From Candidatus Hydrogenedentota bacterium (GTDB taxonomy: Bacteria > UBA8481 > J006), in assembly GCA_003697085.1 (NCBI GenBank), contig RFFU01000022.1, positions 1-23,275 of the forward strand: 23,275 nt of DNA, read 5' to 3'. The notes beneath the pieces are model-generated. The model had not been told where the DNA came from, did not search any database, and saw nothing but the letters and a program-made list of their open reading frames with translations. Within the stretch, counting starts at the first letter, position 1, and every line of letters begins with the position of its first letter. The translations under genes were made by a program, and so were the position numbers. Positions 5,925 through 23,033 of the stretch are shown in pieces.

Positions 5925-6477
<553 letters not shown>

Positions 6478-6624: not shown

Positions 6625-8181
6625 ATGAGGAAAGGGAAGGCGTTTTCCGTTGCGGGCAAGTTGGCTTTGGGTGCGACGACTCTGGTTCTTGCGACGATCG
6701 CGGTTACGAGTTTTCTCCAGTACCGCCAACAGAGCGCGGCACTGGAGGCTTCGCAGGAACGTACCGCTTCCCTGCTGGCGACCTCCGTCTCCGTTCTCGC
6801 CGCACAGGACATCGTCAAGCGCGACATCGCCAATCTTTCCATCTCCCTCCGCCGGATCGCTCAAAACAACCCCAGCATAACGTGGATCGCCATCTTCGAT
6901 GCCAATCGAAAACTCCTCGCGCGCTATCCCGAACAGACGACGCGGGGATTGACGGAAAACATTCGGCCGATCGAACAGGAAATCCGCCATGGCCAGACCC
7001 GCTTTGGTTTCATCCAGATTCTCTTCGACGAGACGCCCCTGAAGGAGGCGCGGCGTTCCTTGATCCGCACGACGCTGATGACGGCCTTGATTCTCTTTCT
7101 CGCCGCGCTCTTCCTCACCCTCACCTGGGCGAAAATCTTTTCGAAGCCGATCGAAAACCTGGCGGAGGCCGCCGAGAAGGTCGGCGAGGGTGATTTGACG
7201 GTCCAGGTTCCGGTTCCGTCCCAGGACGAGATCGGGCTCCTTTCCGACCGCTTCAACAATATGGTCTCGCAGCTCAACGCCAGCCGAAAACGCCTCGAAC
7301 AAATGCTCAACGAACTCTCCACTCTCTACAGCGTTTCGCGTGTCATCAACTCCACCTCCGACCGTTCCGAAATCCTCAAACTCAATCTCGAAACGCTCGC
7401 CACGGGTTTCGGATTCTCTCCCGTGGCGATCCTGATCGAGCAGAATCGAACGTGGTCTCTGGCGGCTTGGCGCGGCGCCGATCCCGAAGCCCCCTCGCCT
7501 CTGAATACGGGGAAAGACGTCTCTCCCCTCGACCTTGACCGGTTGAATCTCAAAGGACTCATCGAGTCGGATTCCGTCGAGAAGGTGCTTCCCAATGCCT
7601 TTCCCCAAACCTGGGGATTCGAACCGGACAAGCCTTGCCTCGGCGTCACTCTGCGGTCCGGCTCGACCGTCGTCGGAATTCTCCTGGCGCAGGCCGCGGG
7701 AGAGAGCACGACCGAGGCGGACCAAATCCTCAGCGTCGTTGCCTCCCAAATCGCGCCGCCGATACTGATAAGCATCCTCACGGAAAAGGAGATGGAAAAG
7801 ATAACCAATCCGTACCGTTATATTGCACAGCGCATCGAGGCAATTCAAAAACGGGCTCTCGACTTCGGGGTTCCCGTTTCCGCGGTGGTCTTCGAAACGG
7901 AACGGGTCCCGGCCCCCGGACAGGCCGCGGAAACCGAGAAGGCCTTCGATGCTCTCGACCGCGCGTTTCGCAAAGAGTATCCGGAGACGGCGCTCGTCGT
8001 TCGATACGGACTGCGCCAATTCCTTGCGATCGTTCCGGGGTGGGACAAGGCGGAAGCCCGTCGCAGTCTGATGCGTGCGGAACTTCCGCATTCGGATTCT
8101 TTCACCACACGTCTTTTCACAATGCCGGACGACGCCCGTTCGGCGCAGGACCTCTTCGCGATCCTCGAGACGCGGGCCTGA
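6625..8181 (+). CDS. Membrane sensor: HAMP, GAF-like and degenerate GGDEF domains
   Basis: A 518-aa inner-membrane signalling protein. TM1 is at about residues 10-30, an extracytoplasmic sensor region at 31-147 and TM2 at 148-168. A HAMP domain (about 169-222) shows KPIENLAEAAEKVGEGDLTV and DEIGLLSDRFNNMV. A short coiled coil (222-240) leads to a GAF-like domain (about 245-380). Residues about 395-518 look like a GGDEF fold, with VPVSAVVFETER for the metal strand, FDALDRAFRKEYP, and VVRYGLRQFLAIVPG where active enzymes have RYGGDEF; the catalytic residues are lost. It probably acts as a non-catalytic receptor or nucleotide sensor. The ATG 6625 follows AAGGAGAGG. It lies 8 bases upstream of the FapA-like gene, so they form an operon. 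The domain assignment of the C-terminus is inference from motif spacing. Confidence 0.82.
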   Translation: MRKGKAFSVAGKLALGATTLVLATIAVTSFLQYRQQSAALEASQERTASLLATSVSVLAAQDIVKRDIANLSISLRRIAQNNPSITWIAIFDANRKLLARYPEQTTRGLTENIRPIEQEIRHGQTRFGFIQILFDETPLKEARRSLIRTTLMTALILFLAALFLTLTWAKIFSKPIENLAEAAEKVGEGDLTVQVPVPSQDEIGLLSDRFNNMVSQLNASRKRLEQMLNELSTLYSVSRVINSTSDRSEILKLNLETLATGFGFSPVAILIEQNRTWSLAAWRGADPEAPSPLNTGKDVSPLDLDRLNLKGLIESDSVEKVLPNAFPQTWGFEPDKPCLGVTLRSGSTVVGILLAQAAGESTTEADQILSVVASQIAPPILISILTEKEMEKITNPYRYIAQRIEAIQKRALDFGVPVSAVVFETERVPAPGQAAETEKAFDALDRAFRKEYPETALVVRYGLRQFLAIVPGWDKAEARRSLMRAELPHSDSFTTRLFTMPDDARSAQDLFAILETRA

Positions 8182-8189
8182 AGCACGCG

Positions 8190-9347
8190 ATGCCTCACCG
8201 GTTCCCCGTCTCCCACTTCCGCCCGGGGATGCGACTCAAGACGGATATCTTTTATGACGGGAGCCTTTTGCTTCCGGCGGGCACGACACTGGCGGATCGG
8301 CATATCAATCAACTTCGATCATGGGCGATCGAAACCGTCGAGACGCAGGAAAACCTCGCCTCTTTCGCGGAAGTCGTGGAGGCGCCGGAAGGGGAGGGAA
8401 GCGGCGAGCCGGTGGTACTCGATATCAGCGAGATCGAGAAAGCGGCGGCGCCTGAACCGCCGCCGCTTCCGAAGGGTTACGCGACGCAGGACGGAAAGAC
8501 CTACGTCGTCGAAGAGGATCTCCCCTCGAACGCCCCCCCAATCAAGACAGATCTTTCCCTCGTCTTTCAGGGAGCCATCGGAGCGGGGAACAAGATCGAG
8601 AGTGAGGCGTCGATCCGGGTCGCCGGCGAGGTTGCGGAGGGATGCACCCTGATCGCAAGAGGGGAGATCACGTGCGGAGCGCCGGTCACGGGAACGGACG
8701 AGACCGCGGTGTCGCTCACGGCTCCGGTCGTCACTCTCTCGCTCGCCTCGTATTGTCAGATCGATGCGGCGGCCTCGATCAAGGCCTCGGGACTCGTTCA
8801 CTGCCGCGCCCGCGCCGGAAAGGAAATCCTCGTTTCCGGCTCCGACCCCGGGATATTGGGAGGAGATCTGGAGGCGGGCGAGACGATCGCCGCCGGTTGC
8901 ATCGCGGAACACAGCGGTGAGCCGGCGGTCGTGCGGATCACGATGGCACGCTACAAGAAACTCTACCTCAACCTGGAACGGCTCGATCGAACGGCGGAAG
9001 CGCGGCGGAAGGAGCGCGAGTCTCTCGAGAAGGTGATTCAGGTCATCAAACTCCTGGGAGAAAAGGTCGTCGATCTCCCGCCGGAAAAGAAACAGGAGTT
9101 GGCGATGCAGTCGAAACGGTATATGGAACTGAAAAAGGAACTATCGGACCTCGCGTTGGCACGGCAAAGACTCGAGGAGGAACTGGCGCGCGAATACTCG
9201 ACGGTCGATGAATGTCCGGTCCGTTTCGATTCCGTGCGCCCATCCGTCAAGATCGTGATCGGGACGGCCGAACTCACCGTCAATTCGCGACAGAATCGCA
9301 TCGGCTACTATCTCCATAAAGGACGCATTCTCGCCGCCACGCACTGA
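8190..9347 (+). CDS. FapA/DUF342-like protein with an HD-GYP-type N-terminal cap
   Basis: A 385-aa protein of the Flagellar Assembly Protein A (DUF342) family. Residues about 5-55 (FRPGMRLKTDIFYDGSLLLP, then LADRHINQLRSWAIETV) resemble the small module found at the N-terminus of HD-GYP proteins. The next 60 residues are acidic and Pro-rich. Residues about 115-250 are a right-handed beta-solenoid, with repeats such as IRVAGEVAEGCTLIARGEI and ILGGDLEAGETIAAG. A long coiled coil follows (about 255-336), then a short beta tail. DUF342 proteins are scaffold-like and linked to flagella or polymers; the exact function is unknown. The start is ATG 8190, since frames upstream lie inside the sensor gene. 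Pairing with a HAMP sensor suggests a signalling role. Confidence 0.8.
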   Translation: MPHRFPVSHFRPGMRLKTDIFYDGSLLLPAGTTLADRHINQLRSWAIETVETQENLASFAEVVEAPEGEGSGEPVVLDISEIEKAAAPEPPPLPKGYATQDGKTYVVEEDLPSNAPPIKTDLSLVFQGAIGAGNKIESEASIRVAGEVAEGCTLIARGEITCGAPVTGTDETAVSLTAPVVTLSLASYCQIDAAASIKASGLVHCRARAGKEILVSGSDPGILGGDLEAGETIAAGCIAEHSGEPAVVRITMARYKKLYLNLERLDRTAEARRKERESLEKVIQVIKLLGEKVVDLPPEKKQELAMQSKRYMELKKELSDLALARQRLEEELAREYSTVDECPVRFDSVRPSVKIVIGTAELTVNSRQNRIGYYLHKGRILAATH

Positions 9348-17616: not shown

Positions 17617-17937
17617 TCAGCCACGAATGAAGAAGTCGGCAATACGGTCGGCGATCTCTTCGATCACCTGGTCCGTGATGAGCGTTCCCTCCTGAAGCTT
17701 CTTCCGGGCGGCTTCCACGCGGTCCATCCGGACCTCGGCACTGCGCGGATCGCTCCCGGGAACCTTCTCAACGGCCTCCGCCAAGGCCTTCCTCAAATCG
17801 GCCTTCGCGCGACCATCCTTCAACTCAACACGGTCGGATTTCTTTTCTTCCTTGGCATCCGTGCCTGTCGTCTTGCGGATCTGGTTCTGATAGGCGGCCT
17901 GAATGTTGTTCAGAGCGCCGATTTGATCTATCACCAT
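17617..17937 (-). CDS. flgM: FlgM-like anti-sigma-28 factor
   Basis: A 106-aa protein that should bind and hold the flagellar sigma factor (FliA/SigD) until the hook is finished and FlgM is exported. The N-terminal half is polar and probably disordered (MVIDQIGALNNIQAAYQNQI, then a Lys/Asp-rich segment with SDRVELKDGR). The C-terminal helices carry the FlgM pattern, from VRMDRVEAARKKLQEGTLIT to VIEEIADRIADFF. The start is ATG 17937, with AAAGGAGG about 10 bases upstream. A sigma-28-like promoter lies about 30-58 bases upstream and a strong terminator follows. It is transcribed alone. The assignment rests on pattern and context, as FlgM sequences diverge widely. Confidence 0.78.
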   Translation of the reverse strand: MVIDQIGALNNIQAAYQNQIRKTTGTDAKEEKKSDRVELKDGRAKADLRKALAEAVEKVPGSDPRSAEVRMDRVEAARKKLQEGTLITDQVIEEIADRIADFFIRG

Positions 17938-21928: not shown

Positions 21929-22756
21929 TCAGCCGAGCAGTCTGATAACGTTCGCCATTCCGATACTGGCTTGTGAAAGGGCCGAGAGCCCCACCTGCGT
22001 CTTCAGTGTAGCCAGGGCGTTTCGTGTTATCTCCTGCGGAAAATCGGTGTCCCGCAGACGAGATTCCGACCGGGACTGGTCCTCCGCACCGATTCTGACC
22101 GCTCCGGTCACCATCTCAAGCCGGTTCTGATAGGCACCGAGCGTACTGCGATTCTCCGAAACCTTGTCGATCGCGCCGTCAACCGTGGCAATCGCGCTTT
22201 CCGCCTCGGACCTCGTTGCGACCGAAAGGGAGTCGATTCCCAGTGTGGCCGTTCTCATATCCCCGAAACTGACGTTCAACGTGTCATCCTTGTTCGCTCC
22301 GATATGGAAGACAAACGGATTTGCCGCTCCGTGACTTCCATCCAGAAGCATCTGCCCGTTGAAGGTGACCGTGCTGACGAGCAGATCGATGTCCGACACC
22401 GTACCCTGGATCTCCAATTGAATCGTCCTCCTGTCGGCCGATGTGTTCGTATCGTTGACGGCTTGAACCGCCAGGGTCCGAATTCTCTGGAGAAGATCGC
22501 CGATCTTGTTCATCGTCCCATCGGCCAACTGAATCATCGAGATGCCGTCTTGAACGTTCAAATCGGCGCGCCGAAGCCCTCTGATCTGCGTCTTCAAACG
22601 CTCCGAAATTCCGAATCCCGCGACATCGTCCGCCGCCACGTTGATCCGTTTTCCCGAAGCAATCCTTTTCGTGGAAACCGTCGCTTCCGAAAGGTTCTTC
22701 TGCACGTTTCGGAAGGCAAAGTCCGCCGTCACATTGGTCCTGATACTCAGTGTCAT
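21929..22756 (-). CDS. fliC: Flagellin
   Basis: A short flagellin of 275 aa. The D0/D1 N-terminal part is MTLSIRTNVTADFAFRNVQK then SGKRINVAADDVAGFGISERL, and the C-terminal D1/D0 ends NALATLKTQVGLSALSQASI then GMANVIRLLG. The variable domain between about 150 and 195 is minimal, as in Bacillus Hag, so the filament has a slim surface. The conserved LQRIRTLAVQAVNDTNTSAD is present. The last ten residues differ from the usual ANQxPQxxLxLL. The start ATG 22756 has GGAGG 10 bases upstream. It is transcribed alone from a sigma-28-type promoter with a structured leader. No flagellin chaperone or cap gene is in the window. Confidence 0.96.
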   Translation of the reverse strand: MTLSIRTNVTADFAFRNVQKNLSEATVSTKRIASGKRINVAADDVAGFGISERLKTQIRGLRRADLNVQDGISMIQLADGTMNKIGDLLQRIRTLAVQAVNDTNTSADRRTIQLEIQGTVSDIDLLVSTVTFNGQMLLDGSHGAANPFVFHIGANKDDTLNVSFGDMRTATLGIDSLSVATRSEAESAIATVDGAIDKVSENRSTLGAYQNRLEMVTGAVRIGAEDQSRSESRLRDTDFPQEITRNALATLKTQVGLSALSQASIGMANVIRLLG

Positions 22757-22765
22757 TTCGCTCTC

Positions 22766-22845
22766 ACCTCCGTGTTCCCCGGTCGCCCGAACCGGGTCTT
22801 CTTTTCGGCGACCTCCGTGTCGCCGCCGGGGACAAATCGTCCCCG
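22766..22845 (-). promoter_or_regulatory. Structured flagellin leader, probable CsrA target
   Basis: The mRNA leader holds three consecutive hairpins: CGGGGAC-gattt-GTCCCCG (22827-22845), GGCGAC-acggag-GTCGCC (22807-22824) and a CCCGGT/ACCGGG stem (22778-22796). The decamer ACACGGAGGT occurs twice: at 22811-22820, placing GGA in a hairpin loop, and at 22766-22775, covering the Shine-Dalgarno site. That pair is the classical layout of a CsrA-repressed leader. Confidence 0.5.
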
Positions 22846-22850
22846 TCTTC

Positions 22851-22878
22851 TTATCGGCAGATTCGAGATAAATCTTTA
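22851..22878 (-). promoter_or_regulatory. Sigma-28-type promoter of flagellin
   Basis: On the minus strand TAAAGATT (22871-22878) and GCCGATAA (22851-22858) are separated by 12 bases. The -10 is a perfect FliA/SigD match, and an A/T-rich stretch (AAAAAATTTTTT-like, 22880-22892) precedes the -35. It sets the leader at about 90 bases. Confidence 0.8.
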
Positions 22879-23033
22879 GGAAAAAATTTTTTACAGAATC
22901 GATGCGCCTCGCGGCCCTCAAGACCCTGAATAAGACGGCCTTGAAGAATCAATAAGGAGGAAGGGGGCAAACGTTCGAGCGGACTTTTATTTTTGCGGGC
23001 TGGAGGCCTGCGGGCCGGGGCGGTCGGCACCGT
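22879..23033. other. Gap upstream of flagellin: no gene seen
   Basis: Contains the A/T-rich upstream element of the flagellin promoter and, at about 22997-23013, the hairpin GCGGGCTggagGCCTGC, another member of the ggag-loop repeat family. No reading frame is supported; what follows is the MITE-like copy B and sequence running off the edge. Confidence 0.5.

What the first reader, a model, noticed from the sequence alone, without database searches (positions are those of the whole stretch)
6625..9347. Membrane HAMP-GAF-like receptor with a dead GGDEF, coupled to a FapA-like scaffold
Seen: RYGLRQF in place of RYGGDEF in an otherwise GGDEF-like C-terminus, and a downstream DUF342 protein 8 bases away whose N-terminus looks like the cap of HD-GYP proteins. 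Both genes therefore carry relics or modules of cyclic-di-GMP signalling without catalytic sites. Inference: a two-protein device that senses an external cue and steers a beta-solenoid scaffold, possibly in motility or polarity. I know of no described system of this composition.
Basis: partly seen in the sequence, partly recalled or inferred. Interest (0 to 1): 0.65.

Follow-up and report, generated by a model that had tools for sequence, protein, structure and literature searches.

The report
Dead-cyclase receptor paired with FapA-type scaffold
Two neighbouring genes encode a membrane sensor whose signalling-enzyme domain has lost its active site and a FapA-type scaffold protein, and the same kind of pair recurs in at least four bacterial phyla, several times inside flagellar or chemotaxis gene clusters, which suggests an undescribed way of feeding signals into flagellum-related scaffolds.

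Summary
The sensor (6625-8181) is TM-periplasmic domain-TM-HAMP-GAF followed by a true but catalytically dead GGDEF fold: RYGLRQF replaces RYGGDEF, the metal and guanine residues and the RxxD I-site are gone, yet hhalign, hmmsearch against solved structures and Foldseek all point to GGDEF. Eight bases on lies a 385-aa protein: an N-terminal cap, found in the same genome on three HD-GYP proteins, plus a FapA/DUF342 beta-solenoid. The pair is conserved in the only other genome of the phylum (44% and 36% identity), and a GAF-pseudoGGDEF gene lies beside a FapA/DUF342 gene in 32 genomes of at least four phyla, Spirochaetota among them, in both gene orders. None of 51 canonical GGDEF relatives examined lies beside FapA. 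Inputs vary (HAMP, second GAF, response-regulator receiver); the GAF-pseudoGGDEF output and the FapA neighbour do not. Relatives sit next to fliS, or between cheX/cheB/cheZ and flgBC. Most likely the dead GGDEF relays a signal to the scaffold by protein contact; contact, cue and phenotype are untested. I found no description in open literature. New variant of a known kind.

The parts
6625..8181 (+). sensor gene, 518 aa: TM - periplasmic - TM - HAMP - GAF - pseudo-GGDEF
6655..6717 (+). first membrane-spanning segment, about residues 11-31
   Evidence: read directly from the sequence (hydrophobic run); no topology predictor was run
6718..7062 (+). presumed periplasmic sensor region, residues 32-146 (CHASE8/Cache-like, weak)
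   Evidence: Pfam CHASE8 E 0.017, below cut-off; orthologue sCache_4 E 0.0033, below cut-off
7063..7131 (+). second membrane-spanning segment, about residues 147-169
   Evidence: read directly from the sequence
7132..7278 (+). HAMP domain, residues 170-218
   Evidence: Pfam PF00672 E 3.5e-15
7342..7755 (+). GAF domain, residues about 240-377
   Evidence: AlphaFold model vs PDB GAF domains, Z about 12; weak Pfam GAF_2
7795..8175 (+). degenerate (pseudo-)GGDEF domain, residues about 391-517
8002..8022 (+). RYGLRQF in place of RYGGDEF; modelled beta-hairpin turn
8190..9347 (+). DUF342/FapA-domain partner, 385 aa
8190..8345 (+). N-terminal cap, residues 1-52, shared with HD-GYP proteins of the same genome
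8541..9329 (+). FapA beta-solenoid domain, residues 118-380
   Evidence: PF03961 E 3e-27; model pLDDT 77 with beta-solenoid
8946..9197 (+). antiparallel helical hairpin inside the FapA domain, residues 253-336
   Evidence: AlphaFold model; conserved block around EKVI.VI.LLG..V..LP.EKKQELA.QSKRYMELK

Best explanation
A signal-relay pair. The first protein is a membrane receptor in which HAMP and GAF domains drive a GGDEF domain that no longer makes c-di-GMP; the dead domain has become an output module that contacts and regulates the FapA/DUF342 scaffold encoded next door, changing its assembly or localisation. Shown by computation: the domain architecture, loss of catalytic and I-site residues, GGDEF ancestry, and conserved adjacency of GAF-pseudoGGDEF and FapA in at least four phyla with exchangeable input domains. 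Inferred: physical contact, direction of signalling, a periplasmic cue, and a role in flagellum or polarity control.
For: Pair conserved in the only other genome of the phylum, 44% and 36% identity, RYGVNCL there. In Spirochaetota (FlaA present) a GAF-GAF-pseudoGGDEF gene is followed at once by FapA/DUF342 in four families. In the G330 and G345 phyla and in G055 the order is reversed (FapA first), often with a receiver domain fused to GAF-pseudoGGDEF. Tally: 32 genomes with degenerate domain and FapA neighbour; 0 of 51 canonical GGDEF relatives have one. The catalytic Asp, the base-binding Asn and the GG[DE]EF motif are lost in all 15 sequences checked by residue. The tree puts canonical cyclases on one side of a branch (100/99) and all pseudo-GGDEFs on the other, and does not reject one origin for the paired ones (AU 0.37). 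Context: fliS close by; cheR/B/D/X/Z cluster; cheX-cheB-HDOD-cheZ-fapA-pseudoGGDEF-REC-NtrC-flgBC. Precedent: a GGDEF domain with degenerate I-site binds the polar landmark HubP (PMC9061725); HubP recruits FapA in Vibrio (title of a paper cited in PMC8789113; that paper was not read here).
Against: No physical-interaction evidence, and no fused gene was found. In the window the pair is not in a flagellar operon, and the partner lacks FapA_N, so it is not the canonical FapA. Nineteen further spirochaete degenerate domains are not next to FapA within the loci fetched, so the dead domain has other contexts too. The canonical/degenerate split in the tree could partly reflect long branches, and the search profile was seeded with paired proteins.
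Confidence: 0.55

Rival explanations
1. PelD-type receptor: the dead GGDEF domain still binds c-di-GMP (or GTP) and passes nucleotide status to the scaffold.
For: Best structural match is PelD, a GAF + degenerate GGDEF protein, which binds c-di-GMP at its I-site (PMC7112168). The genome has 17 GGDEF matches and several HD-GYP proteins, so the nucleotide is probably present.
Against: The I-site RxxD is P..A in the window, N..E in G001 and lacks the arginine in all 15 paired proteins checked; the guanine-binding Asn and the metal Asp are gone too.
Confidence: 0.15
2. Pseudo-enzyme regulator of c-di-GMP enzymes: the sensor pairs with an active cyclase, or the cap ties the scaffold to HD-GYP phosphodiesterases, so that the pair sets local c-di-GMP levels.
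For: The cap is shared with three HD-GYP proteins of the same genome and a HAMP-GAF-GGDEF cyclase of similar architecture exists there.
Against: Most FapA partners of pseudo-GGDEF proteins that were read show no cap (present in own phylum and spirochaete family f280), so the cap cannot be the conserved link; no cyclase or HD-GYP gene lies beside the pair in the window.
Confidence: 0.15
3. The two genes are merely co-transcribed parts of a larger motility or envelope regulon, with no direct contact.
For: Neighbours in relatives include other chemotaxis and flagellar genes.
Against: The two genes stay immediate neighbours while the rest of the surroundings changes between phyla, and both gene orders occur.
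Confidence: 0.12
4. The C-terminus is an active or only slightly altered diguanylate cyclase.
For: Overall architecture resembles DgcN/YfiN (NCBIfam E 5.8e-14 over the TM-HAMP part only).
Against: GG[DE]EF, metal Asp and base-binding Asn are all replaced.
Confidence: 0.02

Closest known systems
PelD (Pseudomonas, Bacillus), c-di-GMP receptor of Pel export
   Same: membrane protein with GAF + degenerate GGDEF; best Foldseek match of the model
   Different: PelD keeps the RxxD I-site and binds c-di-GMP (PMC7112168); here it is lost; neighbour is FapA, not Pel genes; HAMP input instead of the PelD membrane part
PdeB-HubP of Shewanella
   Same: a GGDEF domain with degenerate I-site acts as a protein-docking surface for a polar scaffold (PMC9061725)
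   Different: PdeB is an active phosphodiesterase whose GGDEF domain binds GTP; HubP is not a FapA protein
FapA of Vibrio (and FapA of the Borrelia flgV operon, PMC11607428)
   Same: FapA beta-solenoid domain; Vibrio FapA interacts with dephosphorylated EIIA-Glc (PMC6877527) and is recruited by HubP (title cited in PMC8789113), so FapA is a known target of signalling input
   Different: window protein lacks FapA_N, carries an HD-GYP-type cap, and is not in the flhF-flhG-fliA-like cluster where this genome keeps its canonical FapA
DgcN/YfiN-type membrane cyclases
   Same: periplasmic domain - HAMP - GGDEF layout
   Different: GAF inserted, GGDEF dead, neighbour is a scaffold

Membership tests
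GGDEF diguanylate cyclase (active) | GG[DE]EF signature | tested here: not met
   RYGLRQF; none of the 32 paired proteins has the signature
GGDEF diguanylate cyclase (active) | metal Asp and guanine-binding Asn | tested here: not met
   E and P at these columns in the window; absent in all 15 paired proteins checked
GGDEF fold superfamily | homology to and fold of GGDEF | tested here: met
   hairpin at the motif in the model
PelD-type c-di-GMP receptor | RxxD I-site | tested here: not met
   P..A in the window
PelD-type c-di-GMP receptor | membrane protein with GAF + degenerate GGDEF | tested here: met
   Foldseek 4etx E 1.4e-7 over the whole model; TM-score only 0.34, so the domain arrangement differs or is poorly modelled
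FapA | FapA beta-solenoid PF03961 | tested here: met
   96.4 bits, cut-off 31
FapA | FapA_N domain PF20250 | tested here: not met
   no match in the window protein; present in partners L152, L201, L260
FapA | role in flagellar assembly or polar localisation | not testable with these tools
   needs genetics and microscopy
HD-GYP phosphodiesterase | HD-GYP catalytic domain | tested here: not met
   only the N-terminal cap is shared

The most novel reading that the evidence does not exclude
A widespread, undescribed signalling pair: in at least four phyla a dead GAF-GGDEF domain, probably inactivated long ago and then conserved, serves as the dedicated input module of FapA-type scaffolds, with HAMP, receiver or second GAF domains plugged in as sensors. 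GGDEF has become a nucleotide-independent protein-docking domain controlling flagellum placement or assembly.
Probability: 0.45. Interest if true: 0.78.

Novelty: new variant of a known kind. Interest (0 to 1): 0.62.

Why it matters
FapA/DUF342 proteins are common (eight in this genome) and little understood; what controls them is known to me only from the glucose-PTS/HubP work in Vibrio. A conserved partner with exchangeable sensor domains would give a general, testable answer, and would be a clear case of a c-di-GMP enzyme fold kept across phyla for something other than c-di-GMP. It also warns against counting these proteins as cyclases or simply as GGDEF decay products.

Tried and rejected
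Active cyclase: rejected on residues. Chance loss of the motif in one genome: rejected, the relative is also dead and the pairing conserved. Pfam and PF00990 alone miss the domain, so a single-library look would have called it absent. The VIA-align list for the sensor model was filled by GAF domains and says nothing about the GGDEF part; the Foldseek list did cover it. For the partner model the list shows general beta-helices and coiled coils only. Fusion genes joining both halves: none found. Plasmid search with the sensor: one HAMP-only hit. Literature: 'DUF342' in six papers, 'flagellar assembly protein A' with 'GGDEF' in none, FapA papers none with this pairing; subscription journals are not covered. 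The acidic neighbour of the spirochaete pairs was considered as a third core part but is not found beside the window pair.

Full report
WHAT IS THERE. Two genes on the + strand, 6625-8181 (518 aa) and 8190-9347 (385 aa), 8 bases apart. Upstream is a P-II regulator gene (6133-6477), downstream a PhoH-like gene on the other strand (identified by eye). The window is contig C52 of a 3.2 Mb, 95% complete draft genome whose phylum holds one other genome in the collection, labelled in a public record as Candidatus Hydrogenedentes bacterium CG07_land_8_20_14_0_80_42_17.

THE SENSOR. Two membrane-spanning segments frame about 115 residues of presumed periplasmic domain with only sub-threshold CHASE8/Cache matches; then HAMP (E 3.5e-15), a GAF domain and a C-terminal domain not recognised by Pfam. 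That last domain is a GGDEF domain by four lines: profile-profile comparison with 14 GGDEF domains of the same genome (probability 96.5%, E 8e-10, motif in register); hmmsearch of a seven-sequence profile against solved structures (6d9m 2.9e-8, DosC 1.2e-6, over this domain only); sub-threshold PF00990 hits in homologues; and the structure model (two-sequence alignment, mean pLDDT 70.6), whose best Foldseek hit is PelD, GAF plus degenerate GGDEF, with the cyclase DcsBis close behind. The modelled hairpin turn is at G462-L463-R464, where GGDEF carries its GGDE turn. Metal Asp, base-binding Asn, GG[DE]EF and RxxD are replaced. So on sequence grounds it can neither make c-di-GMP nor bind it at the usual I-site.

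THE PARTNER. PF03961 FapA at 96 bits; the model (pLDDT 77) shows a beta-solenoid with a long helical hairpin. FapA_N is absent; in its place is a 52-residue cap. A cap profile run on the own genome finds three HD-GYP proteins (E 7e-9, 5e-6, 6e-4; HD_5 domains confirmed) and one stand-alone copy. The genome's canonical FapA (573 aa) lies in a flhF-flhG-fliA-like cluster elsewhere (read by eye), so the window protein is a distinct member of the domain family, one of eight.

CONSERVATION. The relative has the same pair, 44% and 36% identical, with RYGVNCL. The lists of the own, G330 and G345 phyla do not overlap with each other or with the spirochaete genomes, so at least four phyla are involved; G055 is probably a fifth. 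Among 51 hits of the same searches with intact GG[DE]EF none had a FapA neighbour (Fisher p about 3e-13 against all degenerate hits including 19 unpaired ones; related genomes are not independent, so this is a description, not a strict probability). Gene order is sensor-first in the own phylum and Spirochaetota, FapA-first elsewhere, so adjacency was kept or regained through rearrangement.

INPUTS AND CONTEXT. The part in front of GAF-pseudoGGDEF changes: HAMP membrane module (own phylum), a second GAF (Spirochaetota), a response-regulator receiver (G330 phylum, G055, part of the G345 phylum), or nothing (G345). In spirochaete family f280 a separate HAMP protein with HATPase and SpoIIE phosphatase domains lies upstream, and there the FapA partner carries the same kind of cap as in the window. 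Neighbours are fliS (families f19 and f288), a cheR-cheB-cheD-cheX-cheY-cheZ cluster (G345) and, in G055, cheX-cheB-HDOD-cheZ-fapA-REC/GAF/pseudoGGDEF-REC-NtrC-flgB-flgC (flgB, cheB and HDOD by eye). The partners read in G345, G055 and the G330 phylum are canonical FapA with FapA_N.

TREE. With 54 sequences, canonical cyclases fall on one side of a branch (100/99), all degenerate ones on the other; one origin of the paired group is not rejected (AU 0.37). This fits one old inactivation, but long branches and profile seeding prevent certainty.

MECHANISM. Most likely the pseudo-GGDEF domain is an output surface that contacts the FapA-type scaffold and reports the state of the attached sensor. 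Shown: anatomy, dead site, conserved coupling. Inferred: contact, cue, effect. Precedents are PdeB-HubP, where a GGDEF domain with degenerate I-site binds a polar scaffold (PMC9061725), and Vibrio FapA, which interacts with dephosphorylated EIIA-Glc (PMC6877527) and is recruited by HubP (title cited in PMC8789113). PelD (PMC7112168) is the nearest architecture but keeps its I-site.

NOVELTY AND LIMITS. No paper found in the open library describes the pairing; subscription journals are not covered. I file it as a new variant of a known kind: a dead-GGDEF receptor with a new, conserved partner. The link of the window pair itself to motility is by analogy only; flagellin and a weak FlgM-like gene are in the window but 8-13 kb away.

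Noticed in passing
L040 6483-8585; L085 8214-10331; L198 3348-6305; L191-L197, L199: In Spirochaetota the GAF-pseudoGGDEF gene is preceded by a large, mostly very acidic protein (25-35% D+E) that ends, in 11 of 11 cases read, in a conserved tail like YLDxLLxxLPExxIxxFxxSxYYxLYxKixxxLG; no Pfam match for the one tested.
   Followed up: partly
L191-L197: A second group of spirochaete degenerate GAF-GGDEF proteins (RxGQGRF or RxDRxK at the motif) sits with the acidic protein downstream of atpD-atpC-like genes, without FapA next door (L192 has a FapA gene five genes away).
   Followed up: partly
L206 382-702 (G000:C97): A stand-alone protein of about 70-100 aa in the window's genome consists of little more than the HD-GYP/DUF342 cap.
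   Followed up: no
L086 4243-5412 (G019:C104): A cap-DUF342 protein like the window's, beside hydrogenase/ferredoxin-like genes; no pseudo-GGDEF neighbour on the stretch held, which ends at a contig end.
   Followed up: no
L108 (G000:C63:39775-40068): Another degenerate GGDEF (AKIDGGRF) in a 771-aa frame of the window's genome.
   Followed up: no
L200 391-4188; L203 1314-4820: HATPase - HAMP - SpoIIE phosphatase membrane proteins shortly upstream of the spirochaete f280 pairs: a partner-switching-type phosphatase that may feed the pair.
   Followed up: no
window 17617-17937 and 21929-22921 (-): Weak FlgM match (below cut-off) and a flagellin gene: the organism is probably flagellated, but these genes are not near the pair.
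   Followed up: partly
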